From Candidatus Uhrbacteria bacterium (GTDB lineage: Bacteria; Patescibacteriota; Patescibacteriia; GWA2-47-26), in assembly GCA_016187515.1 (NCBI GenBank), contig JACPJN010000003.1, positions 1-43,236 on the forward strand: a stretch of 43,236 nt of DNA, given 5' to 3'. This document shows, in pieces, positions 28,330 through 43,089 of this stretch. The notes under the pieces were generated by a model, which was not told the origin of the DNA, did not search any database, and saw only the letters and a list, made by a program, of their open reading frames with translations. The translations under genes and the position numbers were made by a program. Position 1 is the stretch's first letter. Each line of letters starts with the position of its first letter.

Positions 28330-28448
28330 GGAAGCAATTCCAACCAAAAGGCGAAGCATAGCGGAGTCCTCCGAGCATGCGGGTGACCCAAACCCGCAGC
28401 CCGCAAGGCGAAGGTATGCCCGTCGAACCAAGAGGAGGAAGAGAGGCC
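28330..28448 (+). promoter_or_regulatory. structured leader RNA, module A1
   Basis: About 119 bases from the predicted start to the ATG. GGAAGCAATTCC forms a first hairpin. CCTCC (28368-28372) is complementary to GGAGG (28434-28438), which is the ribosome binding site. Inside lie GCATGC/GTATGC, a TGCGGGT/ACCCGCA hairpin with loop GACCCAA, and GCC/GGC. CCTCC can instead form CGGA-GTCC-TCCG with the bases just before it. I do not recognise the class. The related leader of gene B (30539-30660) is nearly identical and that of gene D (33366-33484) is divergent. Confidence 0.7.
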
Positions 28449-30257
28449 ATGCGAAACAAAGTGAAGTCCGCCGAGTATGCCGGTGCCCCAGACCCGAGCC
28501 CGAAGGGCGGAGGCATGCGCGGCGGTAACAGAGGCGGGCGTACCTTGAAAATCTACCTGGTGGCAAGCGCGTTGTGCGCCGCGCTTACCGGTTGCGGCAA
28601 GCATGACACTCAACCATCCGAATCCGACCAATCCGAGCATGCCTATACAACGGCCGAGATTGACCAGGCGTTGGATAACGCGCGGAAAGCGTTTGAAGCG
28701 CAATATGGGCGCAGTGTTGATGTCACGGTGTGGGAGGATCGCGAGTACTTTCCGCTACTGCTGGATTTGGTGATCCAAAATCTCGCCAGCGATGCTGATT
28801 CTGCCGCGCTTATTCGCCGCCACACGCATCCGAAATACGACGGGGACACCGAATATTGCGGTCCGGGCGCCGGGTTTTGGAATCCGGATCCCGGAGATTG
28901 TCTCAATCATATCTGCGCGATTCACGACGCGTGCTACGAGCAGACGAATCCGGAACTGTCTTTTTGGTGCGTTTGGAGCATTGAAACTGACAAGTGTGAT
29001 CAGGTATTTTTCAAGGAGATTGAGCAATGCCCGAGCCCGGGAGAATGTCGTTCCGGCATTGAGCAGGCCTGCAACTTCTACGCGATCTGGGGGATGGCGC
29101 GCGACCTGAAAAGGATGCAAGGGACCAAGGAAGTACAAGCCCAAGAGGGGTGCGGACTTGAAGCCGAGGCAGAGAGTGAGGCCGAAGGTGAAAGTGAAGT
29201 GGAAGGGGAGGGCGAGGCGGAGAGTGAAGCGGAACATGATGTATGGATGGCGATTTCCACCACTGACGCACCTGCGGCGCGCTACTCCCACACCGCCATC
29301 TGGACCGGGAGTGAAATGGTGGTCTGGGGAGGAGCGGGTGATAGTTCGGGTCTCAACACTGGCGGGCAGTATGATCCGGTGACCAACCGTTGGACCCCGA
29401 CTTACACTGCTGGTGCGCCTGCGGCGCGCGCCCACCACACCGCCATCTGGACCGGGAGTGAAATGCTGGTGTGGGGAGGATACAATAGTTGGACTCTCAA
29501 CACTGGCGGGCAGTATGATCCGGTGACCGGCCGTTGGACCGCGATTCCCACCACTGGCGCGCCTGCGGCGCGCATCTACCACACCGCCGTCTGGACCGGG
29601 AGTGAAATGCTGGTGTGGGGAGGAGCGGATGATAGGTTGCCCTTTCCCCTCAACACTGGCGGGCAGTATGATCCGGTGACCGGCCGTTGGACCGCGATTC
29701 CCGCGCCTGGGGCGCGCTCATTACACACCGCGATCTGGACCGGGAGTGAAATGATAGTGTGGGGAGGAAGGGAGATTGTTATTTTCAACACCGGCGAGCG
29801 ATATGATCCGATCACCAATATCTGGACTGCGATCTCCACCGCCTTTGGCGCGCCCGCGGCGCGCTACTTACACACCGCGATCTGGACCGGGAGTGAAATG
29901 ATAGTGTGGGGAGGAACGGATGATAGCGGTCGTTTCCACACCGGCGATCGATATGATCCGATCACCAATACCTGGACTGCGATTTCCACCGCTGGCGCGC
30001 CTGCAGGGCGCTACTACCACACTGCCATCTGGACCGGCAGTGAAATGCTGGTGTGGGGAGGAGAGGGTGAGGGTGGTAGTATTCTCAACACCGGCGGGCA
30101 GTATGATCCGGCAACCAATACTTGGACATCGACCTCCACTGCTGACGCGCCTGAGGCGCGCACCTACCACACTGCCATCTGGACCGGGAGTGAAATGCTG
30201 GTGTGGGGAGGATATGCTGGCCCGACTTTCAACACCGGCGGGCGGTACCGGCCCTAG
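28449..30257 (+). CDS. lipoprotein A: phospholipase A2-like domain, acidic linker and seven kelch repeats
   Basis: 602 residues. The lipobox LTGC gives Cys49 after a hydrophobic core (IYLVASALCAA). YCGPG at 136-140 and C-LNHIC-AIHDAC with His159-Asp160 match the calcium loop and catalytic C-x-x-H-D-x-C helix of secreted phospholipase A2 folds. A Glu/Ala/Ser linker covers about 237-263. Seven repeats of about 47 residues with HTAIWTGSEM and VWGG then form a likely seven-bladed kelch propeller, ending NTGGRYRP. The strong AGAGGAGG decides the ATG at 28449. However, the 32 residues before TTG 28545 are a second leader module, so 28515 or 28545 are alternative starts. Confidence 0.85.
   Translation: MRNKVKSAEYAGAPDPSPKGGGMRGGNRGGRTLKIYLVASALCAALTGCGKHDTQPSESDQSEHAYTTAEIDQALDNARKAFEAQYGRSVDVTVWEDREYFPLLLDLVIQNLASDADSAALIRRHTHPKYDGDTEYCGPGAGFWNPDPGDCLNHICAIHDACYEQTNPELSFWCVWSIETDKCDQVFFKEIEQCPSPGECRSGIEQACNFYAIWGMARDLKRMQGTKEVQAQEGCGLEAEAESEAEGESEVEGEGEAESEAEHDVWMAISTTDAPAARYSHTAIWTGSEMVVWGGAGDSSGLNTGGQYDPVTNRWTPTYTAGAPAARAHHTAIWTGSEMLVWGGYNSWTLNTGGQYDPVTGRWTAIPTTGAPAARIYHTAVWTGSEMLVWGGADDRLPFPLNTGGQYDPVTGRWTAIPAPGARSLHTAIWTGSEMIVWGGREIVIFNTGERYDPITNIWTAISTAFGAPAARYLHTAIWTGSEMIVWGGTDDSGRFHTGDRYDPITNTWTAISTAGAPAGRYYHTAIWTGSEMLVWGGEGEGGSILNTGGQYDPATNTWTSTSTADAPEARTYHTAIWTGSEMLVWGGYAGPTFNTGGRYRP
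28461..28547 (+). promoter_or_regulatory. second leader module A2, within coding sequence
   Basis: A copy of the leader fold offset by 100 bases from A1. The outer stem is CCGCC (28468-28472) with GGCGG (28533-28537) in place of CCTCC with GGAGG, a compensatory change. GCCC-GAA-GGGC and the conserved GTGCCCCAGA loop are present. It precedes a TTG at 28545 that aligns with the RTL start region of genes B and D. Confidence 0.65.
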
Positions 30258-30287
30258 TTCGTTCTTCAAAAATAGAACATGCTGTAT

Positions 30288-30317
30288 GCCGAAGTTCACC
30301 TGGACTTCGGCTTTTTT
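30288..30317 (+). terminator. terminator after gene A
   Basis: GCCGAAGT pairs with ACTTCGGC and is followed by TTTTTT. It belongs to the shared GCCGAGGTT-type terminator series of this locus. Confidence 0.85.
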
Positions 30318-30381
30318 AATTAAAAATCCCTTCTCTTTTAGTATTGTAGGGCCTGGGCTTGTCCCCGGTCGCATCCTATGA

Positions 30382-30523
30382 TGAGAGCGTTGAAGAATTA
30401 ACTCCTGCGCAGTTTACACGAATATCCACGAATAGACGGCCGCCAAAACCGCAGTATTCCGGCGAGGCGCTTACCAGGCGGCCTGACAAATGACCACGAA
30501 TAATTGATTATTCAACGGTCTCA
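30382..30523 (+). repeat. MITE-like element, copy 4
   Basis: A 142 bp copy starting TGAGAGCGTTGAAGAATTAA and ending TTATTCAACGGTCTCA, in the same orientation as copies 1 and 2. Its right end carries the -35 box of the gene B promoter. Confidence 0.87.
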
Positions 30524-30532
30524 TGCTATCAT
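30504..30532 (+). promoter_or_regulatory. promoter of lipoprotein gene B, partly within the MITE
   Basis: TTGATT (30504-30509, inside the terminal repeat of the MITE) and TATCAT (30527-30532, just outside) are 17 bases apart. The RNA would begin at GGAAGCAATTCC (30539). Confidence 0.6.
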
Positions 30533-30538
30533 TGTATC

Positions 30539-30660
30539 GGAAGCAATTCCACAACCAAAAAGGCGAAGCATAGCGGAGTCCTCCGAGCATGCGGGTGACC
30601 CAAACCCGCAGCCCGCAGGGCGAAGGTATGCCCGTCGAACCAAGAGGAGGAAGAGAGGCC
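30539..30660 (+). promoter_or_regulatory. structured leader RNA, module B
   Basis: About 122 bases, nearly identical to module A1. CCTCC (30580-30584) faces the ribosome binding site GGAGG (30646-30650). TGCGGGT/ACCCGCA and GCCC-GCA-GGGC hairpins lie between, and GGTATGC follows. Confidence 0.7.
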
Positions 30661-32610
30661 ATGATCCGTACCTTGACAACCAAATTCTTGGCCATCACGG
30701 CCATGCTTACGGCAGGTTGCGAAAAATCCGAGCCGGATTCAACGCCAATCTGCCAAGATGGTGATTACGACGAAGCAGATGTGCGCGAAGCCGTGGAGGA
30801 CGCGGTGGACGCGTTGAAAAAAAGGGGGGAGACGATTGACCCCTCGGTTTGGGACGACCCCGAACGTTTTGAAGCGCTGGTAGAGCAGACCACGGTGGAA
30901 ATGGGTTGCCATCTTGAGGGAAGCCCGTCAGCAGGACAGAGCGGATTTGGCGCGCGCCGCCAGGGCGGATCTCGGGAGTGCGCGGATACCGATGTCAGAG
31001 AGCGATACGAAGACGACAAGATTTATTGCGGTCCGGGAGTCATTGAACGGGACGATTGCGAGTGGCGCTGGCCCGGCGATTGCCTGAACCGTGTCTGCCA
31101 TACCCACGATCTTTGCTATGATCGGACCAGAATTCCGGAGCTTTCTGTCGCCGGCCGTGATCTGGATATTTGCCTTTGGAGCGATGTGACCGCCGAGTGC
31201 GATCTGGAGTTTTTTGAAGGAGAGGGCGATTGTCTTTCCGGGTTTGATTGCGGAATCCGCTGTATGATCACCGGCGCGATTGCCGCAACGCTTCAGGCAT
31301 TGAGCAGAGTGCCGATTACCAGTGGTATCTCTGTAAGCGATGCATGTGTCGTATGCGCCGAAACCGACGCGTGCGAGGTTGATGAAAAAGGGGACGGGAT
31401 GGAGGGGGAGAGCGAGGCGGAAGCCGAATCCGAGGCGGAGAGTGAAGCGGAGGGAGAAGGTGAAGCCGAGGCGGAATCAGAAGCAGAATCGGAAGCAGAG
31501 AGTGAAATGCTAGAGATATGCAATGCCCTTGATGATAATGGTGATGGGAGAATAGATGAAGATTGTTGTAAGGAACCGGGCAGTTGGATCGCGGGACAAA
31601 TTGCAACAGTTGACCGTGGGATAAGCCCCTCGTTCAGCTTTGCGTTTTCCGGTTATCCCAGATTGATTTATCCTAATGCAGGCGTAGATGCAGAATTTGT
31701 ATATACCCATCGGCAGGATCCTGCGGAATGGACCTCAGAAGTTGTGGGTTCTGGTTCTGCCTCAACGTTGAGAGGATACCGGATTGAATCAGATGAAGAT
31801 GGGGGTATCCATATTGCTTGGAAGGTGGCAAATTTGTCTCCTATAAATTATTTGCGGTCACCTGGAGAAGGAAGACCCTGGAGTGAGGAAACTATTACGC
31901 CATCGGGGGGAAGTTCAATTTACTTGAGTGACCTTGCCGTCACTTCAGAAGGTGTTCCGGCTGTAACCTATCGTAATTCATCTACCAACTTTCTGTATTA
32001 TGCAGAAAGGACTGAAGCGGGCGCTTGGGTATCGAACACAATCTCCTTGAATGCTTTGTCGGGTGGGGCCTTAACATTTGATATATCTGACAACCCGCAT
32101 GTTGCCTACTACGTACCGGAGGACGGAGACGGCAGTCTGTATTATAGGACCAGAAATTCCATGGGGGAATGGGCCAGTTCTTTGAGAGTGGCAAGTTTCG
32201 GCGATCTCCGCGGCCCCATAGACATAAAAACGTATGGGGATATCGACGTTCACATTCTCTTTTTCGATCAGCGCCCCGTTTTTGGAGGAGATGCCAATAG
32301 ATTTTATCATGTGGAAGGAAACAGCGGAGGGGCTTGGTCCACGACAGAACTTTCGGACTGGTCAGGACATGTTTGTTCGGTCAGTGCGAGGGGCTCCCTT
32401 GCATTAGATGGTGAAAATGGTGTTCATATAGTACAATCAATGTGCGGGAACATCGATTACGCGACACGCAATCCTGCAGGCGTATGGAGCGAGGAAGATT
32501 TTGAAAGTAGTGGATCGTATGCAGATATTGCAGTTAATCCGGTTACCGGGACACCCGCGATCGTCTATTTTGACGAAGGAGCCATCTGGTATGCTTACCA
32601 GTGTGAATAA
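30661..32610 (+). CDS. lipoprotein B: phospholipase A2-like domain, acidic linker and propeller-like C-terminus
   Basis: 649 residues. Lipobox LTAGC, Cys20, after MIRTLTTKFLAITAM. The phospholipase A2-like region has YCGPG at 122-126 and C-LNRVC-HTHDLCY with His149-Asp150. Residues about 240-280 are a long Glu/Ala/Ser tract. CNALDDNGDGRIDEDCC is a MopE-like calcium-type repeat. The rest consists of six or so repeats with Tyr/Trp-rich strands (NPHVAYY, LYYRTRNSMGEW), probably a propeller unlike kelch. The usual RYRP tail is not part of the frame; a remnant lies 50 bases after the stop. AGAGGAGG decides the ATG. Confidence 0.85.
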   Translation: MIRTLTTKFLAITAMLTAGCEKSEPDSTPICQDGDYDEADVREAVEDAVDALKKRGETIDPSVWDDPERFEALVEQTTVEMGCHLEGSPSAGQSGFGARRQGGSRECADTDVRERYEDDKIYCGPGVIERDDCEWRWPGDCLNRVCHTHDLCYDRTRIPELSVAGRDLDICLWSDVTAECDLEFFEGEGDCLSGFDCGIRCMITGAIAATLQALSRVPITSGISVSDACVVCAETDACEVDEKGDGMEGESEAEAESEAESEAEGEGEAEAESEAESEAESEMLEICNALDDNGDGRIDEDCCKEPGSWIAGQIATVDRGISPSFSFAFSGYPRLIYPNAGVDAEFVYTHRQDPAEWTSEVVGSGSASTLRGYRIESDEDGGIHIAWKVANLSPINYLRSPGEGRPWSEETITPSGGSSIYLSDLAVTSEGVPAVTYRNSSTNFLYYAERTEAGAWVSNTISLNALSGGALTFDISDNPHVAYYVPEDGDGSLYYRTRNSMGEWASSLRVASFGDLRGPIDIKTYGDIDVHILFFDQRPVFGGDANRFYHVEGNSGGAWSTTELSDWSGHVCSVSARGSLALDGENGVHIVQSMCGNIDYATRNPAGVWSEEDFESSGSYADIAVNPVTGTPAIVYFDEGAIWYAYQCE

Positions 32611-32659
32611 AATGGCCACAGTGCCAGGTATCGTGTTGTGTTAGCGACGATAGCAAAAG

Positions 32660-32683
32660 AGTGGCGCTCGTTACCGGCCCTAG
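32660..32683 (+). pseudogene. remnant of the family 3' end (SGARYRP) after gene B
   Basis: The bases after gene B read AGTGGCGCTCGTTACCGG then CCCTAG, which would encode S-G-A-R-Y-R-P-stop, the tail of the kelch lipoproteins. It is followed by TTCGTTCTTCAA and the family terminator. It lies beyond the real stop codon, so the central part of gene B appears to have replaced a kelch domain. Confidence 0.65.
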
Positions 32684-32706
32684 TTCGTTCGTTCTTCAAC
32701 TCAACC

Positions 32707-32743
32707 GCCGAGGTTCCCATTCGGGGAACCCCGGCCTTTTTTT
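32707..32743 (+). terminator. terminator after gene B
   Basis: GCCGAGGTTCCC pairs with GGGAACCCCGGC, followed by TTTTTTT. Confidence 0.9.
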
Positions 32744-32812
32744 ATTCTGCTTTCCGAAATAATTTTGACAGGCCTATCTATCCCTTTGGATTATAAATGC
32801 CCATTCTACAAA

Positions 32813-33046
32813 TTAACTGGGGAGTCGGCTCGCGTGCATGATGGTAAGACCAACGATGTGTTCTCCGCGCCGACGCACGAGTATATTGTTTTCAAGCAAT
32901 TCGCTATCGGTTGCCTGTTGCGGACGCTCAAACGAAACATATAAGACATCCGCTTCTTTATCATAATCAAACCACGCATGAGGATATTGCATGCGAAGAA
33001 AAATGGGAACGGCTTTTAGTGCTTCTTGAATTGCGGTTTGCGCCAT
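32813..33046 (-). CDS. DUF2283-family protein (77 aa)
   Basis: WFDYDKEADVLYVSFERPQ and ENNILVRRRGEHIVGLTIMHAS match DUF2283, a small beta-rich domain often found beside toxin-like genes. The ATG at 33046 overlaps the end of a degraded frame upstream. Its function is unknown; an antitoxin-like role is only a guess from typical context. Confidence 0.75.
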   Translation of the reverse strand: MAQTAIQEALKAVPIFLRMQYPHAWFDYDKEADVLYVSFERPQQATDSELLENNILVRRRGEHIVGLTIMHASRLPS

Positions 33047-33150
33047 ATAATTGAACGACGATTGGTAAGTTGGTCGGGTTTTGAAGTTTGAAACGCGGTG
33101 ATGATAAATCCATCCTTAATGCGGTTTACTCCGCCTAGCGAGGGAGGAAA
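33016..33150 (-). pseudogene. possible remnant of a toxin-like gene upstream of DUF2283
   Basis: On the minus strand the frame ending at 33016 reads ...GVNRIKDGFIITAFQTSKP, which resembles the C-terminal strand of DUF4258-like or RelE-like proteins that often pair with DUF2283. No start codon or intact N-terminus is found; the upstream sequence looks unrelated. A promoter faces it from 33253-33280. Confidence 0.3.
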
Positions 33151-33252
33151 GCAAATGATGACATTTGCTTTGCAACCGAGCGACGACGGCGCAAAGGTTG
33201 AATGCCGCGCGGCTTGCTTGCCACGGGGTCCTTTACAAGTGTGGGTAGTTTC

Positions 33253-33280
33253 ACTATACCATAACGATAGGATGCGTCAA
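33253..33280 (-). promoter_or_regulatory. minus-strand promoter toward the DUF2283 gene
   Basis: On the minus strand TTGACG (33275-33280) and TATAGT (33253-33258) are 16 bases apart. About 200 bases separate it from the DUF2283 start; that stretch holds the possible gene remnant and a GCAAATG/CATTTGC palindrome near 33150. Confidence 0.6.
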
Positions 33281-33285
33281 ATTAG

Positions 33286-33337
33286 TGTGGATTGTATGGC
33301 AAAAGCAAAATACGGTCTCTTTTTTAGAACTTGACAC
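33286..33337 (+). repeat. 52 bp direct repeat containing a -35 box, copy 1
   Basis: Identical to 34939-34990. It begins TGTGGATTGTATGGC, includes ATACGGTCTC and TTTTTTAGAAC, and ends in TTGACAC. It precedes gene D here and the 35064 gene in the other copy. A shortened version (TACGGTCT...AAAACTTGACAC) precedes gene F. Confidence 0.9.
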
Positions 33338-33359
33338 CATACGCCGTTATTGTTATTTT
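33331..33359 (+). promoter_or_regulatory. promoter of lipoprotein gene D
   Basis: TTGACA (33331-33336) and TATTTT (33354-33359) are 17 bases apart; the leader would be about 118 bases, as for genes A and B. Confidence 0.7.
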
Positions 33360-33365
33360 AAAAGC

Positions 33366-33484
33366 GGCTCTACCAACAACAAGGGAGGCGTAGCGTAGCG
33401 GAGTCCTCCGAGCCTGCGGGTGCCCCAGCGCCGCAGCCCGAAGGGCGAAGGTATGTGCGTCGAACCCAGAGGAGGAAAAAAGCC
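33366..33484 (+). promoter_or_regulatory. structured leader RNA, module D
   Basis: CCTCC (33405-33409) pairs with the ribosome binding site GGAGG (33471-33475). TGCGG/CCGCA with loop containing GTGCCCCAG, then GCCC-GAA-GGGC and GTATG lie between. An additional GGAGG at 33385-33389 could compete for CCTCC. The first hairpin of A and B is not conserved. Confidence 0.65.
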
Positions 33485-34684
33485 ATGCGTACCTTGACAA
33501 TGACCGCGTTTTTGCTGGCGTTCTTGACCGCCTGCGGAGGCGGCGACTCAACCACCGCCCCACAGGAAGGTGAGGATGAAGCCGAGGCCGAAGGCGAGGA
33601 AGACGAAGCCGAGACGGAGAGTGAAGTGGAACATGATGTATGGGTGGCGACTTCCACTGAAGGCGCACCGACAGCTCGCCGGCGCCACACCGCCATCTGG
33701 ACCGGGAGTGAAATGATAGTGTGGGGAGGATTGGATAATGGTCGGAATCTGATCAACACCGGCGGGCGGTATGATCCGGAAACCAATACTTGGACCACGA
33801 CTTCTACCTCTGGCGCGCCTGCGGCGCGCAGCGACTACACTGCCATCTGGACTGGGTCGGAAATGATTGTGTGGGGAGGACAAGAGGGATCCAGCCAACT
33901 TAACACCGGCGGGCGGTATGATCCCGTGACCAACTCCTGGACTGCGACCTCCACTGCTGGCGCGCCTGCGGCGCGCTGGTTCCACACCGCCATCTGGACC
34001 GGGTCTGAAATGATGGTGTGGGGCGGATGGAATGAATGGCGTGATTTCATCAACACCGGCGGTCAGTATGATCCGGAGACCAACACTTGGACTGCGACCT
34101 CCACCGCTGGCGCGCCTACCGTGCGTCGTGTACACACCGCGATCTGGACCGGGTCGGAAATGATTGTGTGGGGCGGAGACAGTGATGGTAGTGCGCTTCT
34201 CAACACCGGCGGGCGGTATGATCCGGAAACCAATACTTGGACCACGACTTCTACCTCTGGCGCCCCTGCGGCACGCGAAATCCACACCGCGGTCTGGACC
34301 GGAGAGGAGATGATTGTGTGGGGAGGATGGGATAATGATTGGAATCCGTTCAACACCGGCGGGCGGTATGATCCGGAAACCAATACTTGGACCGAGACCT
34401 CCACCACTGGCGCGCCAGCGACGCGCGTCGGCCACACCGCCATCTGGACCGGCTCCGAGATGATTGTGTGGGGAGGAGAGGCTAGATGGGATGATAGTGC
34501 TTTCAACACCGGCGGGCGGTATGATCCGCTAACCAATACTTGGACTGCGACCTCCACCGCTGGCGCGCCAGCGGCGCGCAGCGACCACACCGTCATCTGG
34601 ACTGGAGATGAGATGATTATGTGGGGAGGGGGAGGATGGGATGAAGATGATCACCTTGACACCGGCGGGCGGTATAGACCCTAG
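33485..34684 (+). CDS. lipoprotein D: acidic linker and seven kelch repeats
   Basis: 399 residues. MRTLTMTAFLLAFLTAC gives a clean lipobox with Cys17. A Glu/Ala linker covers about 28-50, directly followed by HDVWVATST, identical in style to gene A. Seven repeats of about 50 residues each carry HTAIWTGSEM and VWGG, with NTGGRYDPETNTWT between blades. The end is DTGGRYRP. The phospholipase A2-like domain of gene A is absent, so this is the short kelch form. The blade DNA is close to identical between repeats and to gene A. Confidence 0.9.
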   Translation: MRTLTMTAFLLAFLTACGGGDSTTAPQEGEDEAEAEGEEDEAETESEVEHDVWVATSTEGAPTARRRHTAIWTGSEMIVWGGLDNGRNLINTGGRYDPETNTWTTTSTSGAPAARSDYTAIWTGSEMIVWGGQEGSSQLNTGGRYDPVTNSWTATSTAGAPAARWFHTAIWTGSEMMVWGGWNEWRDFINTGGQYDPETNTWTATSTAGAPTVRRVHTAIWTGSEMIVWGGDSDGSALLNTGGRYDPETNTWTTTSTSGAPAAREIHTAVWTGEEMIVWGGWDNDWNPFNTGGRYDPETNTWTETSTTGAPATRVGHTAIWTGSEMIVWGGEARWDDSAFNTGGRYDPLTNTWTATSTAGAPAARSDHTVIWTGDEMIMWGGGGWDEDDHLDTGGRYRP

Positions 34685-34714
34685 TTCGTTCTTCAACCGT
34701 TCTTCAACCCAACC

Positions 34715-34745
34715 GCCGAGGTTTCTTCCCGAACCTCGGCTTTTT
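34715..34745 (+). terminator. terminator after gene D
   Basis: GCCGAGGTT pairs with AACCTCGGC, followed by TTTTT. Confidence 0.9.
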
Positions 34746-34899
34746 AATTTTCCGAGAATTTTAAGTCCGGGGCGCAGAAATTCTGTCGGAAAATTAACCC
34801 GCCAAGTATGCGGGTGCCCCAGGTCCGCAGCGCAGCAAAGGTATGCTCGTCGGCGGGAGCGGCGGGTAACATCTAAAGTGTGCTTCCAAGTCGTCCCGT
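34732..34899 (+). repeat. 168 bp direct repeat, copy 1
   Basis: Nearly identical to 35470-35637, 738 bases away. It spans the 3' arm of the terminator, a long stem-loop, a leader-like RNA module and a following stretch up to GTCGTCCCGT. The unit between the copies includes the 35064 gene, so the pair most likely arose by tandem duplication. Confidence 0.9.
34746..34870 (+). ncRNA. detached structured element E
   Basis: AATTTTCCGA (34746-34755) pairs with TCGGAAAATT (34786-34795), with GAATTT/AAATTC extending the stem. Then CCCGCC (34798-34803) pairs with GGCGGG (34852-34857) and encloses TATGC, TGCGG/CCGCA with loop GTGCCCCAGG, and GGTATGC. This is the leader fold without a start codon behind it. 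GGGGC in the first loop can pair with GCCCC in the module, a possible pseudoknot. Whether it is an independent RNA is unknown. Confidence 0.55.
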
Positions 34900-34938
34900 G
34901 TTTGGCTCGATCGCGCTAAATGCAAGACGTTTAGGAAA

Positions 34939-34990
34939 TGTGGATTGTATGGCAAAAGCAAAATACGGTCTCTTTTTTAGAACTTGACAC
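34939..34990 (+). repeat. 52 bp direct repeat containing a -35 box, copy 2
   Basis: Identical to 33286-33337; it carries TTGACA at 34984-34989 in front of the 35064 gene. Confidence 0.9.
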
Positions 34991-35011
34991 AGCACGCTGC
35001 ACTACTAGATG
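34984..35011 (+). promoter_or_regulatory. promoter of the 35064 gene
   Basis: TTGACA (34984-34989) with TAGATG (35006-35011) at 16 bases. A second TTGACA at 35018-35023 with TAAGTT 17 bases on is an alternative. Confidence 0.5.
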
Positions 35012-35063
35012 ATACACTTGACAAGCTCGCTCGAATATGGTAAGTTGAGTTTAGGAGGAAAAC

Positions 35064-35423
35064 ATGGAAAAACTGACCTGCCAGGCGGCACTTGCCGCAC
35101 TGTTGTTTACCGCTTCCTGCAGAAGCGGAAGCCCGCCCGGAGAGGGTGAGGATGGTGTTGATGGCGAGGCCGAGGCGAGAGCCGAAGCCGAGTCCGATGG
35201 CGACGCGATCCGGACCGGCTTCCAGGGGGTCGTGTGTAACGGAGTGGCTTGCGACTCTGCGTTTTTCAGCGACGAGTGGTACGATCCGGCCACGAACTCC
35301 TGGACTGCGACTTCCGCTGGCCGCTGGATCACCGCCATCTGGACCGGCTCGGAAATGATCGTGTGGAGCGGAAGCGGAGACGATGTCTCTGTCCTCAACA
35401 CCGGCGCTCGTTACCGGCCGTAG
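35064..35423 (+). CDS. short lipoprotein with one kelch-type blade (119 aa)
   Basis: MEKLTCQAALAALLFTASC gives Cys19. An acidic stretch (EGEDGVDGEAEARAEAESD) follows, then a single blade with WYDPATNSWTATS and TAIWTGSEMIVW, ending LNTGARYRP. It keeps both family ends but only one blade, so it looks like an internal deletion product of a kelch lipoprotein and is unlikely to form a propeller alone. AGGAGG lies eight bases upstream; there is no structured leader directly before the ATG. Confidence 0.8.
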   Translation: MEKLTCQAALAALLFTASCRSGSPPGEGEDGVDGEAEARAEAESDGDAIRTGFQGVVCNGVACDSAFFSDEWYDPATNSWTATSAGRWITAIWTGSEMIVWSGSGDDVSVLNTGARYRP

Positions 35424-35452
35424 TTCTTCCGTTCGTTCTTCACATCCTGCAT

Positions 35453-35483
35453 GCCGAGGTTCTCCGCAAACCTCGGCTTTTTT
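35453..35483 (+). terminator. terminator after the 35064 gene
   Basis: GCCGAGGTT pairs with AACCTCGGC, followed by TTTTTT. Confidence 0.9.
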
Positions 35484-35637
35484 AATTTTCCGAGAATTTT
35501 AAGTCCGGGGCGCAGAAATTCTGTCGGAAAATTAACCTGCCAAGTATGCGGGTGCCCCAGGTCCGCAGCGCAGCAAAGGTATGCTCGTCGGCGGGAGCGG
35601 CGGGTAACATCTAAAGTGTGATTTCAAGTCGTCCCGT
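35470..35637 (+). repeat. 168 bp direct repeat, copy 2
   Basis: Second copy of 34732-34899. The few differences include CCTGCC for CCCGCC in the outer stem, which keeps pairing through a G-U wobble. Confidence 0.9.
35484..35607 (+). ncRNA. detached structured element F
   Basis: Same layout as element E: AATTTTCCGA (35484-35493) with TCGGAAAATT (35524-35533), then CCTGCC (35536-35541) with GGCGGG (35590-35595). It lies before the promoter of gene F, so it is not part of that gene's leader. Confidence 0.55.
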
Positions 35638-35659
35638 CTTACGGTCTATTCTTTAAAAC

Positions 35660-35689
35660 TTGACACAATCTCTGGCACTCTGCTAGATT
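35660..35689 (+). promoter_or_regulatory. promoter of lipoprotein gene F
   Basis: TTGACA (35660-35665) and TAGATT (35684-35689) are 18 bases apart; the leader is short and unstructured, with GAGGAGG before the ATG. Confidence 0.65.
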
Positions 35690-35718
35690 TAAAGTGGCTA
35701 ACCACCGAGGAGGAAGCC

Positions 35719-37566
35719 ATGACCCTTGAAAATCTGCGATTGAAAATGTTCGGTCTGCTGCCAGCTGTTAGTTTTGCAGCGCTGCTGTATGCCGGGTGCG
35801 ATCGTTCTGATATGAGTTCTTCATCAGGCGGAAGAGAAGGGGAAGCAGAAGGAGAGCGGGACCGGATGGGAGAAAGGCATGAAGATGGCGGGGCAAATGA
35901 CGGCTGTATTCCTGCAACGTATTTTCTGGACAACGATGGAGACGGCTATGGCGCTCCCATGCAGAATTTGGAAGGTTGCATGAAGCCGAAAGGCTATGCC
36001 ACAAATGCAGATGATTGCGATGATGGAAATGAAAATATTTATCCCGGCGCAGAAGAACTCTGCGATGGGCTGGATAATGACTGCAATAGAGAAATTGATG
36101 ATGGTTTAACCGCACCTTCGCAGGAATGTTTTGCCGGCAGAGGGGAATGCCGGCGTGCCGGCCTGGAATACCAGGTTTGCGAAGGCGCAGCCGGATGGAG
36201 TACGGATTATAGAAATTGCGATGCGTCTGCCGGAGAAGCAGCAGCAGAATTGTGTGATGGATTGGATAATGACTGTGATGAAACGAATGACAATAATCTT
36301 ACCAGGCCATCAAGAGAATGTTATATTTCTGTAGCTGGGTGCAGGCGTCCGGGAATGGAGTACCGGGCCTGTGAAGGCGCAGCCGGATGGAGCGCCCAAT
36401 ACCAAAACTGTGAGGCCGATGCGCTTTCGGAAGAAGTATGTGATGCATTGGATAATGATTGCGATGGGTTTATAGATAATCATTGCGCCAGAGAGATCTC
36501 TGCCGGATATCGTGCAACCTGCATGACTTTAGGCGATACTTCTGTCCGCTGCTGGGGGTACAATGGGCTAGGACAGCTCGGAGACGGCACGAACACCGAA
36601 CGCCATACACCCACTCCCGTCTCCGGGCTAAGAGGTGCTGTTGGGATTTCTCTTGGACAACATCACGCCTGCGCTCTATTGGAAGAGGGTTCTGTCCGCT
36701 GCTGGGGCGCGAACTCGTACGGCCAACTGGGAGATGGCACAAGCACCGATAGCTCAGTGGTGCCCATAGCGGCGGTTTCCGGAGTGGGCAGCGCGGTTCA
36801 GCTTTCTGCCGGATTTCATCACACCTGCGCGGTTTTGGAAAACGGTTCTGCCCGATGCTGGGGAAAGAATGAGAACGGCCAACTGGGCAACGGCACAAAT
36901 AATGATGGTGGTCCTACCCCCCCGGTGACTGTTTCCGGACTGGCAGGCATCATTCAAATCTCCGGTGGAGAGAATCACACCTGCGCGGTATCAGCAGATG
37001 GCTCTGCCTATTGTTGGGGGCGTGACCAGTACGGCCGACTGGGTACTGGCTCCAGCGACTATCCGGACCCGCACACTCCCGCATTGATTTCCACTCTTAG
37101 TGATGTTGCTCAAATCAGCGCTGGAATGTGGCACACTTGCGCAGTATCAGCAGACGGCTCTGCCTATTGCTGGGGTGCGAACCCGTACGGCCAACTGGGC
37201 AATGGCTCAGCCTACCTATTCAGACCAAGTGACTCCACGCCAGGATTGGTTTCCGAGCTGGAAGATGCCTCCCAAATCACTGCCGGAGATGAACATACCT
37301 GCGCTTTATTGGGAGACGGCTCTGCCCGCTGCTGGGGGTACAACATAGCTGGCCGGCTCGGCGACGGGACGGTCATAGACCGCTATACACCCGTCGCGGT
37401 TTTTGGACTTAGTGATGCTGTCAGGCTTTCTACCGGAAGTGCCCACACCTGCGCAGTTTTAGAAGACGGTTCTGCCCGCTGCTGGGGGAACAACTCGTAC
37501 GGCCAACTGGGAGATGGCACGACGCAAAGTCGAACTACCCCCGTGGAAGTGGTATGGACGGAATAA
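35719..37566 (+). CDS. lipoprotein F: MopE-like repeats and RCC1-type propeller
   Basis: 615 residues. Lipobox LYAGC, Cys27, then a short acidic segment (GREGEAEGERD). Residues about 60-250 hold three CDGLDNDC-type MopE/metal-binding repeats with Cys pairs. From about 255 to the end there are six or seven RCC1-type repeats of about 50 residues (HTCAVLEDGSARCWGNNSYG, QLGDGT), a predicted seven-bladed propeller with many Cys. It shares signal, linker and terminator with the kelch lipoproteins, but the central part is unrelated. GAGGAGG decides the ATG. Confidence 0.9.
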   Translation: MTLENLRLKMFGLLPAVSFAALLYAGCDRSDMSSSSGGREGEAEGERDRMGERHEDGGANDGCIPATYFLDNDGDGYGAPMQNLEGCMKPKGYATNADDCDDGNENIYPGAEELCDGLDNDCNREIDDGLTAPSQECFAGRGECRRAGLEYQVCEGAAGWSTDYRNCDASAGEAAAELCDGLDNDCDETNDNNLTRPSRECYISVAGCRRPGMEYRACEGAAGWSAQYQNCEADALSEEVCDALDNDCDGFIDNHCAREISAGYRATCMTLGDTSVRCWGYNGLGQLGDGTNTERHTPTPVSGLRGAVGISLGQHHACALLEEGSVRCWGANSYGQLGDGTSTDSSVVPIAAVSGVGSAVQLSAGFHHTCAVLENGSARCWGKNENGQLGNGTNNDGGPTPPVTVSGLAGIIQISGGENHTCAVSADGSAYCWGRDQYGRLGTGSSDYPDPHTPALISTLSDVAQISAGMWHTCAVSADGSAYCWGANPYGQLGNGSAYLFRPSDSTPGLVSELEDASQITAGDEHTCALLGDGSARCWGYNIAGRLGDGTVIDRYTPVAVFGLSDAVRLSTGSAHTCAVLEDGSARCWGNNSYGQLGDGTTQSRTTPVEVVWTE

Positions 37567-37618
37567 GGGATAAAAAATGGAGAGGTGAAAAATCCCTCGA
37601 GATCGGGGTTTTGGTCTC

Positions 37619-37642
37619 ACCGGCGCTCGCTACCGTCCGTAG
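37619..37642 (+). pseudogene. remnant of the family 3' end (TGARYRP) after gene F
   Basis: Bases 37619-37642 read T-G-A-R-Y-R-P-stop, the tail of the kelch lipoproteins, 52 bases beyond the gene F stop and followed by TAGTTCTTTCG and the shared terminator. It marks a replaced central region, as after gene B. Confidence 0.7.
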
Positions 37643-37664
37643 TTCTTTCGATCTCAACCCAACC

Positions 37665-37694
37665 GCCGAGGTTTTCCCAACCTCGGCTTTTTTT
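37665..37694 (+). terminator. terminator after gene F
   Basis: GCCGAGGTT pairs with AACCTCGGC, followed by TTTTTTT. Confidence 0.9.
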
Positions 37695-37796
37695 ATTAAG
37701 GAGTTAAGTAAAATAATAAAAAAGCCCCGCATTTGGATGGGGGCGGGGAAAAGGGGGGGTGCCGGGATTTTAACAAAGGCGATTGAATTTCAGGTA

Positions 37797-37824
37797 TTGA
37801 CAGATCTTGCCTATATATTATAGG
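37797..37824 (+). promoter_or_regulatory. candidate promoter in the 37.7-38.2 kb gap
   Basis: TTGACA (37797-37802) and TATAGG (37819-37824) are 16 bases apart. It could drive the small ORF at 37849 or the large gene at 38175. Confidence 0.5.
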
Positions 37825-37848
37825 ATAAAAGTAGGATGCGAATAAGCT

Positions 37849-37959
37849 ATGAATAAATGTATGAACGGCAGCATTTTTACCAATTCAATGAAATTGGAAT
37901 ACCGCGAGCATCGGATTATTAAAGCGGGTATATTTGATATTCCGCGGGTTGCTGGATAA
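37849..37959 (+). CDS. small ORF (36 aa), doubtful
   Basis: MNKCMNGSIFTNSMKLEYRE begins a 36-codon frame 25 bases after the candidate promoter. No Shine-Dalgarno and no recognised family. The rest of the 37.7-38.17 kb gap holds only the hairpin at 38004. Confidence 0.25.
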   Translation: MNKCMNGSIFTNSMKLEYREHRIIKAGIFDIPRVAG

Positions 37960-38003
37960 GATGGTTGGTGTGTAAAGATCTGACAAAGTAAGTAGGCATA
38001 AAT

Positions 38004-38032
38004 AAAATCCCGCGGGAAGTCCGTGGGATTTT
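38004..38032. terminator. symmetric hairpin before the 38175 gene
   Basis: AAAATCCCGCGG pairs with CCGTGGGATTTT over GAAGT. It could terminate in either direction or act in a leader. Confidence 0.5.
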
Positions 38033-38174
38033 CGCTAAATTTGGAGATTGCAGGGTATGATTCTGGAATCGTTCAGGATTATAGCCAGCACTCTCTTCAC
38101 AAAATTGGAGGAGTGCGTGCACTTTGACAATTAAGGGCTTTACAAAGCCAAGAAATCAGTAAAGGAGGACGAGC

Positions 38175-41100
38175 ATGCATCCTAAGCTCAATTCAGCATA
38201 CCAAAGCGCGTTTGCGATACTGGTTTTTGGATACATCGGTCAACCGCGTTCGGCCGAAGCATGTTCCGTAGTGTTTCCGAGCGAAGTGCCGACTGGAGCG
38301 AGTTTTGACATAGAAGTTCACCACACTCTCCCAAGCGTGAGTTGGCACGGACAATTTGTTGCCCGCGCATCAGTAGGGGTTCCAACACGCACCGGCGATC
38401 GTCAATGCATTGACGATCGTTATGTCGGACCGTATTGTTCCGTGATTAATGTCCGCGCTCCTGCAACGGCGGGTTTGTTCGCCATTGAGGTGGAATGCGG
38501 AGTGGAAGATTGTGATGGTAGCGGTACAAGGTGGCTTGATACCGAGTGGGCGACGATCGAAGCCGGAGACAGATGGCGCGGGTCAAGTTCGCGCACCTGT
38601 CCGTCAACCGGGCGTGAGTGTTCCTGTTCAGATTGTGATCCGCACTCCGACCTGGATTACGATGCCTACAATATCGTTTCCGGTCGCGCCCGCGCCGGCG
38701 AGGAGTTCCGCTTTGAACTCCGGATCTGCAATGTCGGCGACGGTCTGTGCGAGATTGATACGGTTGATCTTAACCGTGACAGCGGGCCGAGTGTTTCGTG
38801 GGGCGACGACGAAGAGGCCAGCGATGAGGATTTGGGTCCGGGCGATTGCTCCTGGGTTGGCGATCCGTTTTGCCTAACCGCGAATTCAGACGGTCGTCTC
38901 TGGATTGAGATTGACGTTGAAAGCGATACTGACGGGGATTGGTACCGCGATGTAGATTCGTTCTACATTGACATTGAAAGATCTGATCCCTGTGCCGGCG
39001 TGGTATGTTCCGATATCTGCAGCGGCTCCTCGCTCATCACCAGTCGCACGTGTTCTGGCGGAGCATGCGGCGGCGGAGTAGGTACAAATTGCGCTTGGGG
39101 TTGTTCTACTTCCGGTGGCGCGCATTGCAATCCGGATCCGTGTGCCGGACGCGTGTGCTCCGGCGGTTGTCCGAATACCTGTAGTGGTTCTACTCTCATC
39201 ACCGGGCGCGTTTGCAATTGTGGGTCCTGTACCGGTGGTACGGGTACAAGCTGTGCTTGGGGATGTACAGGTACGGGCGCCAATACGCGGTGCCGTCCCA
39301 ATCCTTGTGCCGGGGTGGTTTGCCCCGCAGGATGTACGGGAAATACGCGGCGCTCTAACGGAAGGCCGGTGGTAAGGAGCGACACTAGCTGCGAGTGCGT
39401 GTACGATACTCTGGATTGCGCTACCCTCAACAATGTGGGTGCGAGCAGTCAGTATTGTTGCGGCGAAAATGCCTGTTCTCGCGAGTTGGAAACGAGCTAC
39501 GCTTGCTCGGCCGGTTTGTGCCAGGTTGACCAAACTCGGTGGGTGAACGAGCGCGTGGAGTTTGCCTGCGAGAACATGGACACTGCGCCGGAAACATCCT
39601 TGTACTGTTCCGGGAATGACGTGCGCGGAGTAGATCGTTTCATGGATTACTCGTGTAATCCGGAAACGATTACGTGTGTAGGGGAACCAACCGAAGCAGA
39701 CGACCGATTGGTTGAGCGCTGTCCGTACGGCTGCGCTGATTCCGGTGGCGCGCATTGTAACCCAAACCCATGCGCCGGAGTAACCTGCCCCGCAGGTTGT
39801 GTAGCCGGCAATGTGCGCCGGTATAACGGTACGCCAGTGGTCAGCGGCGGATCCTGCCGGTGTGATTACGAATCGCAGGACTGCGATGATCTGGATAATG
39901 CCGGGGTACGAGAGGAGTATTGCTCCGGCAGTGATGTTTGGTCGCATTACTGGTATACCGACTATGGATGCAGTGGTAGCGGATCGTGCGCCATCTCAAG
40001 TCAATCCTGGTCAGACAGCCGGCTGGAGGAAACTTGTGCAGGTCGCGGCTGTTTAGACCGTGGCGGCGCGCATTGTAACCGTCCCCCTACGCTGGTCGTG
40101 CGGCGAGTGGGAGAGGAGGAACCGTTGGCGGATGGATCGGTGATTGAGATGACAACCGGCGATCTGGTTGAACTTGAAACCTCGGCCAGTTTTGACCCTG
40201 ACGGAAATGCACTGACTTTTCGTTGGTTTGTGGATGAAGAGGATGTGACACCGGATGAAGCGGAGCGTTTCTCCTGGCAGACATTTTCTCCAGGTCAATT
40301 CCGGCTTCGCGTTCGGGTTACCGATGGGTTGACCGAAGTTGATCAGGAGTTTGATCTAGTTGCATATCTCGACGATATTGCGGCTCATTGGGATGGGTCA
40401 CGCAATATACGCACGTTTGAGATTACGCTACCTTCAAACGGCACGATCAATTACGGGTTTTATACACCCAGCGGACTGGATGACTTCTCAATAACCCTTG
40501 ATTTGGATGGTCTGTGGTCGCAATTCCCATTTGACGATGTCGGGATGTGGGTTGATCCTCCAGATCAAGTTCCTTGGTTCGGACATGTCAACGACTGGCC
40601 ATTGTTTGACCGGGTGCAATTCCGGCGTCAAGATACCCCGGACGGGAATTGGGGCCTAGAGGTGGTTACCGGCTTCACGCTGTCGCATAATGCCACTCTG
40701 GAGTTCGCATACGACTGGCCATACCCGGATCCGCCCGGACACTTTTTATCCTCGTGTGCATGGGGATTGGTATCCGGTAAATGCGCCGACGACCTGGATT
40801 GCATCGATTGTGCGTTGGGTGGAGTGGCCCTGGTGGTTTTGGTTCCGATAGATGAGGCGCAAGACGCGATCAACTTCGTGGTCAACGCGGTCGTGGCCTC
40901 CTGGAACACCAGCGAGGGATTGGCGGCGTACATACTCTATCGCGATCCGGATGCGTTTGATGACGCCGTGCGATATTGGATCGCGAGCGGGTTGTCGGTC
41001 GTTAACTTCGTGGTCGTTATTGATGTTGGGTTTGTTCGTTATCTTGATAACATTCCGCAGTCCGCAGAATGGTTGCGGCGGTTCGGTTTCCTTACCGACG

Positions 41101-42029
41101 ATATGGTTCGCCGATTTGGGGATGGTCTTCCGGAGATCGTTGGCAATGATCGCGGTCTTCGGAGAGTGTTTAATCGGCGCGCGGCCACGATTCCGGAAGG
41201 AATGCCGGATTGGGAAAAGGACAGCTTCATCGCACTCGTTGATGAGGTTGATCCGCTTTGGACGCGCGCTGTGCGAGACGGGAAAGATACGCTTTCTTCG
41301 GGAGAGCGCGGTATCTTCCGAGAGCGTTTTACCCAGCTTCATGCGCGCTCCCGCGGCTTGCAGCCGATTCGGATGGGGAGCGCGAGCCCAACTGGTCCGC
41401 TTACCAATCAGCGCATCACGCACATCGGCGGGCGTTCTCTCGGTACTGATATTGATTATGCACTCCAGCACGAAGATGGGACGCTTTACCTTTTTTTCGT
41501 TGCGGGTGATAACGCTGTAGCGGGAGGACGCGCCCACAATCTCGGGGAGATCGAGCAGGTGCAGAGATTCTTTAGCGCAAACTCTGACCTTGCCACGCAG
41601 TTTCCGAACCGGGTGTATGTAAGCTGGGCAGGCACGCGCCGGGCTTCGTTGGGTACGGTGGAAACTTTTGTGGAAGTAACGAGTCGCGCAGTAGAGGAGA
41701 ATGAGGAAAAACCGGATTGGCTAGATCCGTCCGATCCTCGGCTTGTTCCGGTGGGAAGCGTGGATGGCGGAGCCGCGGTATGCAGTCGTATTTGTTTCTC
41801 CGGTTCGGAGCAGGAAAGCGACTGCGGCAATTACTTCGGAGCGTGCGAAAATCTTCCGGGCAAGGTGTATTCGTGCGAGATGGTCGCGTGTGATGTGGGA
41901 CCGCCGCCGATGCCTGACGGGTGTGATTGTCGCGCGGGTCAGAATTCCGGAAACGATGTTCCTTTCGTGTTCTTTGTGTCTACGCTGGGCGTATTGTGCT
42001 GGCGAATGAGGCGTAGGCGCATTCGTTAG
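38175..42029 (+). CDS. giant Cys-rich secreted protein with C-terminal sorting signal (1284 aa)
   Basis: AAAGGAGG before the ATG decides the start. A signal peptide with AEA-C cleavage lies at about residue 30. About 40-270 is beta-rich. Cys-rich repeats starting PCAGVVC, PCAGRVC, PCAGVTC begin near residues 272, 320, 376 and 531. A PKD-like domain (SASFDPDGNALTFRWFVDEE) covers about 636-730. Near 880-960 are two hydrophobic stretches (LGGVALVVLV and LSVVNFVVVIDVGF). About 1000-1220 contains GTDIDYALQHEDGTLYLFFV, faintly like a nuclease core but without E-x-K. The end has CDC, a membrane helix and RMRRRRIR, like MYXO-CTERM signals. Function unknown; adhesion or polymorphic-toxin-like activity is speculation. 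Confidence 0.85.
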   Translation: MHPKLNSAYQSAFAILVFGYIGQPRSAEACSVVFPSEVPTGASFDIEVHHTLPSVSWHGQFVARASVGVPTRTGDRQCIDDRYVGPYCSVINVRAPATAGLFAIEVECGVEDCDGSGTRWLDTEWATIEAGDRWRGSSSRTCPSTGRECSCSDCDPHSDLDYDAYNIVSGRARAGEEFRFELRICNVGDGLCEIDTVDLNRDSGPSVSWGDDEEASDEDLGPGDCSWVGDPFCLTANSDGRLWIEIDVESDTDGDWYRDVDSFYIDIERSDPCAGVVCSDICSGSSLITSRTCSGGACGGGVGTNCAWGCSTSGGAHCNPDPCAGRVCSGGCPNTCSGSTLITGRVCNCGSCTGGTGTSCAWGCTGTGANTRCRPNPCAGVVCPAGCTGNTRRSNGRPVVRSDTSCECVYDTLDCATLNNVGASSQYCCGENACSRELETSYACSAGLCQVDQTRWVNERVEFACENMDTAPETSLYCSGNDVRGVDRFMDYSCNPETITCVGEPTEADDRLVERCPYGCADSGGAHCNPNPCAGVTCPAGCVAGNVRRYNGTPVVSGGSCRCDYESQDCDDLDNAGVREEYCSGSDVWSHYWYTDYGCSGSGSCAISSQSWSDSRLEETCAGRGCLDRGGAHCNRPPTLVVRRVGEEEPLADGSVIEMTTGDLVELETSASFDPDGNALTFRWFVDEEDVTPDEAERFSWQTFSPGQFRLRVRVTDGLTEVDQEFDLVAYLDDIAAHWDGSRNIRTFEITLPSNGTINYGFYTPSGLDDFSITLDLDGLWSQFPFDDVGMWVDPPDQVPWFGHVNDWPLFDRVQFRRQDTPDGNWGLEVVTGFTLSHNATLEFAYDWPYPDPPGHFLSSCAWGLVSGKCADDLDCIDCALGGVALVVLVPIDEAQDAINFVVNAVVASWNTSEGLAAYILYRDPDAFDDAVRYWIASGLSVVNFVVVIDVGFVRYLDNIPQSAEWLRRFGFLTDDMVRRFGDGLPEIVGNDRGLRRVFNRRAATIPEGMPDWEKDSFIALVDEVDPLWTRAVRDGKDTLSSGERGIFRERFTQLHARSRGLQPIRMGSASPTGPLTNQRITHIGGRSLGTDIDYALQHEDGTLYLFFVAGDNAVAGGRAHNLGEIEQVQRFFSANSDLATQFPNRVYVSWAGTRRASLGTVETFVEVTSRAVEENEEKPDWLDPSDPRLVPVGSVDGGAAVCSRICFSGSEQESDCGNYFGACENLPGKVYSCEMVACDVGPPPMPDGCDCRAGQNSGNDVPFVFFVSTLGVLCWRMRRRRIR

Positions 42030-42038
42030 TTAGGATGT

Positions 42039-42076
42039 CCGTAGGCGGAGGTGTCTCCTTTCGCCTACGGTTTTTT
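42039..42076 (+). terminator. terminator after the 38175 gene
   Basis: CCGTAGGCGGA pairs with TCGCCTACGG, followed by TTTTTTG. Confidence 0.9.
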
Positions 42077-42189: not shown

Positions 42190-43089
42190 TTACGCGCGCT
42201 CCACCCAGCGCGCAAGCGCGGTATCCGGCGGGATTTGGTAATTGCGGATTGCGTGGATGATGCCGAGTTTTTCCGGATTGAGCGAAGAACGGACGTATAT
42301 TCCGCCGCGCGTGAGAATCACGCTATCTTTGACTAGCGCCGCGAAGGCCTCATCAAACAGACCAATCAGGTCTGACGGCAGATTTCGCGCGCGTTGGTCT
42401 TCCGGATTCACATTGGCGGCGCCGAATTGCCGTCCGGCCCACATTCGGCGCACAATGCGCCAAGCCACCCAGAAACGGAGTTCGCGCGGATTTTCCGGAC
42501 GGGGACGGCTGATGAGCGGCGAGGGAGGCGCGGCTTTTGGTTCCGGATCACCCGTGGCGGGAGCGTTGGCACGGTGGCTGCCTCTTTGCCTTACGGCCCA
42601 GCGTTCCAGTACCTGCGTGGTCCATTCGCCGTTTCCGCGCAAGGCGCGTTTAAGTCCGCGCCGGCGCGCTTCGTTTAGAAAGTCCGGATACGCGAGCAGA
42701 TCGCTTTCCCACAGCGCGGGCGCGCGCTTGAGCTCGCGCTCAAACCGGTAGGTTAGCGCGAGCGTTGCCGGGGTGCGCGCGCCAAGGTTGGCGTCAACCA
42801 GCCAACGGTGCGGAATGCCATAATCGCGGGCGGTCGCACAGCACAGCGCGATTCCGGCCGCGTCAAACCCGCGCTTAAGGTAATCGTGCAGAACGCGGAT
42901 CGGCGTACCCGGATGCGCGCGGCGCAGAGTATCAAGCGCGCGATAGGTTTTCACGTCCGCGGGCTTAACTCGCCGCGCGATCGCGTAGGCGCGATTTACT
43001 CCGATTTGCGAGCAGGCGCTAAAGAAAGATTCCGGATGCTCCGGATTGACTCTCATAAGCCCTCGGGTACGTTTGCCAAATTCCTGCAC
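42190..43089 (-). CDS. hypothetical protein (299 aa), possibly 5'-truncated by the IS
   Basis: I do not recognise a family. The product is helical and Arg-rich, with no signal peptide or membrane helix; a Pro-rich linker (about residues 180-200) separates two helical parts. The frame opens at a GTG (43089) only nine bases from the IS end and stays open up to the transposase stop, so the original N-terminus may have been lost. An ATG at 43056 (MRVNPEHPES) is an alternative start. No ribosome binding site is clear at either. Confidence 0.65.
   Translation of the reverse strand: MQEFGKRTRGLMRVNPEHPESFFSACSQIGVNRAYAIARRVKPADVKTYRALDTLRRAHPGTPIRVLHDYLKRGFDAAGIALCCATARDYGIPHRWLVDANLGARTPATLALTYRFERELKRAPALWESDLLAYPDFLNEARRRGLKRALRGNGEWTTQVLERWAVRQRGSHRANAPATGDPEPKAAPPSPLISRPRPENPRELRFWVAWRIVRRMWAGRQFGAANVNPEDQRARNLPSDLIGLFDEAFAALVKDSVILTRGGIYVRSSLNPEKLGIIHAIRNYQIPPDTALARWVERA

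What the first reader, a model, noticed from the sequence alone, without database searches (positions are those of the whole stretch)
38175..42029. Giant Cys-rich protein with MYXO-CTERM-like tail
The end combines Cys-containing CDC, a hydrophobic helix and RMRRRRIR, a tripartite signal like MYXO-CTERM, which is mainly described in Myxococcota and needs a dedicated processing protease. The body mixes Cys-rich PCAGVVC repeats, a PKD-like domain, hydrophobic segments and a distal domain with GTDIDYAL. The order resembles large adhesins or polymorphic toxins with a pretoxin membrane segment.
Basis: partly seen in the sequence, partly recalled or inferred. Interest (0 to 1): 0.62.

Follow-up and report, generated by a model that had tools for sequence, protein, structure and literature searches.

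The report
Orphan cysteine-rich surface-anchored giant protein
A tiny-genome bacterium (probably Patescibacteria) carries a real 1,284-residue, cysteine-rich, secreted protein that most likely stays on the cell surface by a plain C-terminal membrane anchor; the anchor only superficially resembles the MYXO-CTERM sorting signal of myxobacteria, and the protease that signal needs was not found in this genome.

Summary
The gene is real: 38175-42029, 1284 aa, strong ribosome-binding site, terminators on both sides, 74 Cys. The tail has the tripartite layout described (GCDCR, about 15 hydrophobic residues, RMRRRRIR). But it scores 14.3 bits against MYXO-CTERM (TIGR03901, cut-off 20). Three of 60 tails with the upstream part shuffled score at least as well, so most of the signal comes from the helix and arginines. 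The contig belongs to a 1.2-Mb genome, not a myxobacterial one. No CPBP protease (the myxosortase superfamily) was found at E up to 10, no over-cut-off sortase or second MYXO-CTERM, and no similar Cys tail in a sampled third of the genome. The 'GTDIDYAL' domain is predicted, at low confidence, to fold like a PD-(D/E)XK nuclease, with E-x-K replaced by F-V-A and no lysine in its core, so it is probably not a working nuclease; it is neither terminal nor followed by a visible immunity gene. No relative turned up in 380 genomes of the phylum, GTDB contigs, viral contigs or phages. Best reading: an orphan, disulfide-rich surface protein with a C-terminal membrane anchor. Side lead: other genomes of this phylum do carry over-cut-off MYXO-CTERM tails, each with a CPBP protease.

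The parts
37665..37687 (+). intrinsic-terminator-like stem closing the upstream MopE/RCC1 gene
38162..38168 (+). ribosome-binding site AAGGAGG, 6 nt before the ATG
   Evidence: read directly
38175..38261 (+). aa 1-29, Sec-type signal peptide ending PRSAEA|C (not a lipobox)
   Evidence: inspection; no signal-peptide predictor available
38262..38984 (+). aa 30-270, stretch with moderate Cys content, no family match
38985..40076 (+). aa 271-634, Cys-rich modules: four PCAG(V/R)(V/T)C units followed by YCSG..., W.D.RLxExC..GC.D.GGAHCN blocks
   Evidence: internal repeat, E 2.8e-4; D13
40119..40352 (+). aa 649-726, PKD-like domain, sub-threshold
   Evidence: PF18911 E=0.0013
40383..40724 (+). aa 737-850, probably beta-rich stretch (by inspection) without a family match
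   Evidence: aa 726-875: no match
40794..41045 (+). aa 874-957, two hydrophobic stretches with an acidic linker
41298..41624 (+). aa 1042-1150, predicted PD-(D/E)XK-like domain around GTDIDYAL; E-x-K replaced by F1108-V-A1110
41781..41930 (+). aa 1203-1252, Cys-rich linker, 8 Cys, ending GCDC
41919..42026 (+). aa 1249-1284, MYXO-CTERM-like tripartite tail (GCDCR / VPFVFFVSTLGVLCW / RMRRRRIR)
42039..42070 (+). intrinsic terminator: 13-bp stem, then TTTTTTGTTT

Best explanation
An orphan secreted surface protein. It is exported by Sec through an N-terminal signal, folds into a chain of disulfide-rich and beta domains outside the cell, and is held at the cytoplasmic membrane by a short C-terminal transmembrane helix with an arginine stop-transfer end. 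The membrane-proximal part holds a nuclease-fold domain that has lost its catalytic residues and may bind nucleic acid or another ligand. Shown: the gene, its layout, the Cys content, and the tail's sub-threshold score. Shown by negative searches only: no CPBP protease found, no over-cut-off sortase. Inferred: export, topology, unprocessed anchoring, the adhesin- or binding-type role, and loss of nuclease activity.
For: RBS and flanking terminators. Cys-rich repeats, and extremely low Lys (0.5%) with an acidic charge, shared with the neighbouring kelch and MopE/RCC1 proteins, three of the neighbours having lipobox-like signals, against 2-11% Lys in the housekeeping proteins of the same contig. 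PKD-like domain. Hydrophobic end plus RMRRRRIR. No CPBP match at E up to 10, none with a profile of CPBPs from tail-bearing genomes, no over-cut-off sortase. Fold searches return mainly PD-(D/E)XK enzymes; no Lys in aa 1038-1178.
Against: The terminal hydrophobic run is short for a permanent transmembrane helix, and GCDCR at the right distance is what a Cys-processed tail would look like. The structure models are of low confidence (pLDDT 50 and 62) and no fold match is significant (best E 0.035). No relative was found to test conservation. The whole genome could be searched only with tools, not scanned as a file.
Confidence: 0.66

Rival explanations
1. The tail is a divergent, functional MYXO-CTERM-type signal: Cys1250 or Cys1252 is lipidated and the helix is cut off by an unrecognised intramembrane protease, leaving the protein lipid-anchored.
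For: Full-length alignment to TIGR03901 positions 2-34 at 14.3 bits, when the validated TraA tail itself scores only 20.6. GCDC matches the generic GCGC motif of the myxosortase paper (PMC11980579). Related tails over the cut-off exist in other genomes of the phylum, together with CPBP proteases.
Against: No CPBP match in this genome or its family; below cut-off; 3 of 60 shuffles reach the score; 15% of shuffles reach it against a profile of the phylum's own tails; a solitary tail as far as tested.
Confidence: 0.1
2. Contact-dependent polymorphic toxin: aa 1010-1180 is a nuclease payload behind a pretoxin hydrophobic segment.
For: Hydrophobic segment followed by a predicted PD-(D/E)XK-like domain.
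Against: E-x-K lost and no Lys in the core; the domain is followed by a Cys-rich linker and an anchor rather than ending the protein; a strong terminator follows and the next ORF is on the opposite strand with no family match; no toxin or defence family match.
Confidence: 0.07
3. Sortase- or exosortase/rhombosortase-type processed anchor of another class.
For: Same tripartite topology.
Against: Only a sub-cut-off sortase match (12.1 bits against 26.6) and no LPXTG motif; NCBIfam reports no PEP-CTERM or other tail model for it. Exosortase and rhomboid enzymes were not searched.
Confidence: 0.09
4. The contig is mis-binned from a larger-genome (e.g. myxobacterial) organism.
For: MopE, RCC1 and kelch surface proteins are also common in Myxococcota (own knowledge).
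Against: The contig carries S2, EF-Ts, L10, RF1, PrmC, MreB, YceG and a DUF4012 protein; G+C (about 0.52) fits contig C6; the assembly is listed as 100% complete with 0.34% contamination.
Confidence: 0.04

Closest known systems
MYXO-CTERM / myxosortase (TIGR03901; TraA/MrtX of Myxococcus xanthus)
   Same: Order and spacing: G-C-x-C, about 11 residues, hydrophobic run, Arg-rich end; N-terminal export signal.
   Different: Sub-threshold score, solitary, no CPBP protease found, not in Myxococcota; processing unproven.
PD-(D/E)XK nuclease superfamily (Cas4-like ACE1, AdnAB/AddAB, NucS/EndoMS, Shedu, XisH, Hjc)
   Same: Predicted helix-strands-helix-strand order; Asp in the G-T-D-I-D strand; about 20 of the 21 best fold matches of the shorter model belong to this superfamily (family assignment from own knowledge).
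   Different: E-x-K replaced by F-V-A, no lysine in the core, extracellular context; no match individually significant.
Cys-rich, PKD-bearing surface proteins of bacteria and DPANN archaea
   Same: Repeated short Cys modules and a PKD-like domain in a secreted protein (resemblance recalled from memory, not tested).
   Different: No sequence relative found in any collection searched.

Membership tests
MYXO-CTERM (TIGR03901) | Score over the curated cut-off (20 bits) | tested here: not met
   14.3 bits for the 42-aa tail, 11.7 with 55 aa of context; not reported for the whole protein
MYXO-CTERM (TIGR03901) | Signature motif with invariant Cys (generic GCGC) | tested here: met
   GCDC at aa 1249-1252; weak, since the linker is Cys-rich anyway and 3/60 shuffles do as well
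MYXO-CTERM (TIGR03901) | Hydrophobic helix, then Arg-rich extreme C-terminus | tested here: met
   short, about 15 residues
MYXO-CTERM (TIGR03901) | N-terminal signal peptide | tested here: inconclusive
   inspection only: hydrophobic core, PRSAEA|C; no predictor available
MYXO-CTERM (TIGR03901) | Several substrates per genome | tested here: not met
   no second over-cut-off match genome-wide (the search also missed the window's own weak tail); none among ORF ends in about 456 kb, 38% of the genome
MYXO-CTERM (TIGR03901) | CPBP-family myxosortase present | tested here: not met
   PF02517: no match at E up to 10, controls ring in 12 of 14; profile of related CPBPs: none (but no positive control in that set)
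MYXO-CTERM (TIGR03901) | Cleavage and lipidation at the Cys | not testable with these tools
   needs mass spectrometry
Sortase (LPXTG) substrate | LPXTG-like motif and a sortase | tested here: not met
   no motif; best PF04203 match 12.1 bits, cut-off 26.6
PEP-CTERM or rhombosortase substrate | Tail model match and cognate exosortase/rhombosortase | tested here: inconclusive
   no PEP-CTERM or GlyGly-CTERM model reported for the tail; the enzymes were not searched
PD-(D/E)XK nuclease | Fold | tested here: inconclusive
   pLDDT 50 and 62; fold matches mainly of this superfamily, E 0.035 at best
PD-(D/E)XK nuclease | Catalytic D...(D/E)xK | tested here: not met
   D1094 present; F1108-V-A1110 where E-x-K belongs (manual mapping); no Lys in aa 1038-1178
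Polymorphic toxin | C-terminal toxin domain and a downstream immunity gene | tested here: not met
   domain ends about 130 aa before the C-terminus; terminator and opposite-strand ORF follow; no family match

The most novel reading that the evidence does not exclude
Members of this small-genome phylum (probably Patescibacteria) run their own Cys-based C-terminal sorting system related to MYXO-CTERM/myxosortase, and the giant protein is a divergent client, processed by an enzyme not recognisable as CPBP.
Probability: 0.09. Interest if true: 0.66.

Novelty: new variant of a known kind. Interest (0 to 1): 0.34.

Why it matters
If only the main reading holds, it is one more orphan surface protein of a kind expected in small-genome, probably host-dependent bacteria, notable for its disulfide-rich architecture and a probable pseudo-nuclease domain. 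The wider point is that over-cut-off MYXO-CTERM tails together with CPBP proteases occur in other genomes of the same phylum. If those pairs work, Cys-based C-terminal sorting is not confined to Myxococcota and exists in bacteria thought to lack an outer membrane, which would bear on what the signal originally did.

Tried and rejected
Homologues: whole protein in the order (3 genomes); aa 860-1180 and the Cys-rich region in 380 genomes of the phylum, GTDB contigs and viral contigs; whole protein in phages; aa 895-1222 in plasmids: nothing. An alignment of the Cys repeats was too variable to search with. A home-made profile from seven tails of the phylum did not separate this tail from shuffles (3.7 bits; 307 of 2000 tails with a shuffled upstream part do as well). 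Considered and rejected: toxin payload, sortase substrate, mis-binned contig. Co-occurrence of tails with CPBP: seven of seven tail-bearing genomes against 124 of 380 in the phylum sample. These come from only three families, so it is suggestive, not proof. Solved structures by sequence: only weak PKD-like matches.

Full report
Observation. The ORF 38175-42029 is a genuine gene: 1284 codons open from an ATG with AAGGAGG 6 nt upstream, with a terminator before it (37665-37687) and a 13-bp terminator directly after its stop codon (42039-42070). Its composition is that of a secreted protein: 74 Cys, only 6 Lys, strongly acidic. The described elements are all there: four PCAG-type Cys modules, a sub-threshold PKD-like domain, two hydrophobic stretches at aa 874-957, GTDIDYAL, and the tail.

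Setting. The window is one whole contig (C2, 43,236 bp) of a 1.2-Mb, 10-contig assembly listed as 100% complete with 0.34% contamination. Nearly all listed genomes of its phylum are between 0.5 and 1.5 Mb. With a DUF4012 protein on the contig, I infer Patescibacteria; no named record confirmed this. The contig carries S2, EF-Ts, L10, RF1, PrmC, MreB and YceG, so mis-binning is unlikely. The giant lies at the end of an island (28.4-42.0 kb) of secreted proteins: two kelch proteins (one with a clear lipobox-like signal), an uncharacterised lipobox-bearing protein, a short kelch-like ORF and a lipobox-bearing MopE/RCC1 protein, Lys-poor where measured and separated by repeated intergenic blocks.

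The tail. Against TIGR03901 the tail aligns over positions 2-34 at 14.3 bits (42-aa piece) or 11.7 (55-aa piece); the cut-off is 20 and the tail of TraA, a validated substrate, scores 20.6. Among 60 tails in which only the 20 residues before the helix were shuffled, three score as well, the best at E=0.0029. The Cys motif therefore adds little beyond helix plus arginines, and the stretch before it is Cys-rich anyway. Genome-wide, only a Cys-less tail of a 1057-aa lamin-tail-like protein rings, below cut-off. This search did not report the window's own tail, so its sensitivity for weak tails is limited. A direct scan of ORF ends in 38% of the genome found no other tail with a Cys at this place.

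The protease. Myxosortase is a CPBP-family protease (PMC11980579). PF02517 finds nothing in this genome at E up to 10, while it rings in 12 of 14 control genomes; nothing up to E 0.1 in the two family relatives; and nothing with a profile of CPBPs from tail-bearing genomes in 19 genomes, own included (without a positive control). The best sortase match is far below cut-off. Exosortase and rhomboid enzymes were not searched. The claim is 'not found', not 'proved absent'.

The GTDIDYAL domain. AlphaFold2 without an alignment gave pLDDT 50 (aa 860-1180) and 62 (aa 1010-1180). The second model runs helix, strands, helix, strand, and almost all of its 21 best PDB matches are PD-(D/E)XK enzymes (family assignment from own knowledge), although none is significant; the first search shows the same tendency. 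By hand mapping, D1094 takes the place of the first acidic residue and F1108-V-A1110 the place of E-x-K; there is no Lys between 1037 and 1179. I take it as a probable inactive nuclease fold, at moderate confidence. The domain is not C-terminal, has no immunity-like partner and matches no toxin or defence family.

Relatives. None was found. The protein is an orphan, which limits every statement about conservation.

Side lead. In the same phylum five of 380 genomes have TIGR03901 matches over the cut-off (20.8-33.4 bits); the five that were read lie at true C-termini with GGC or EGC, a helix and RRR/RRK, and two more genomes have sub-cut-off copies of the same kind. All seven genomes carry a CPBP protease of 54-82 bits; those scanned score below cut-off against the MrtJ, MrtS and Mrt_core models. 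In the phylum sample 124 of 380 genomes have a CPBP match. The seven come from three families, so the association is suggestive only. In the held library no paper has MYXO-CTERM together with Patescibacteria or CPBP together with Patescibacteria.

Verdict. Observation confirmed; MYXO-CTERM membership and toxin readings not supported; an orphan disulfide-rich surface protein with a plain C-terminal anchor is most likely.

Noticed in passing
L007, L008, L009, L010, L011 (G029, G179, G295, G157, G066); sub-cut-off L013, L015: Over-cut-off MYXO-CTERM tails in other genomes of this small-genome phylum, each genome also carrying a CPBP protease (L022-L026, L029, L031); possibly a sorting system outside Myxococcota.
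   Followed up: partly
28377-42029: Island of Lys-poor secreted proteins (kelch, MopE/RCC1, giant), Lys 0.5-1.8% against 2-11% in housekeeping genes of the contig.
   Followed up: partly
28346-28451, 30558-30663, 33383-33488; 34741-34911, 35479-35649; 33286-33344, 34939-34997: Near-identical blocks (79-99%) repeated at the starts of and between the surface-protein genes, one with a TTGACA; possible shared promoters or recombination sites.
   Followed up: no
L004:6393-9566 (-): 1057-aa lamin-tail-like surface protein ending in AVAAAAALRRRKLF..., a Cys-less C-terminal tail that weakly rings for MYXO-CTERM.
   Followed up: no
42190-43089 (-): 299-aa Arg-rich orphan ORF facing the giant gene, no family match.
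   Followed up: no
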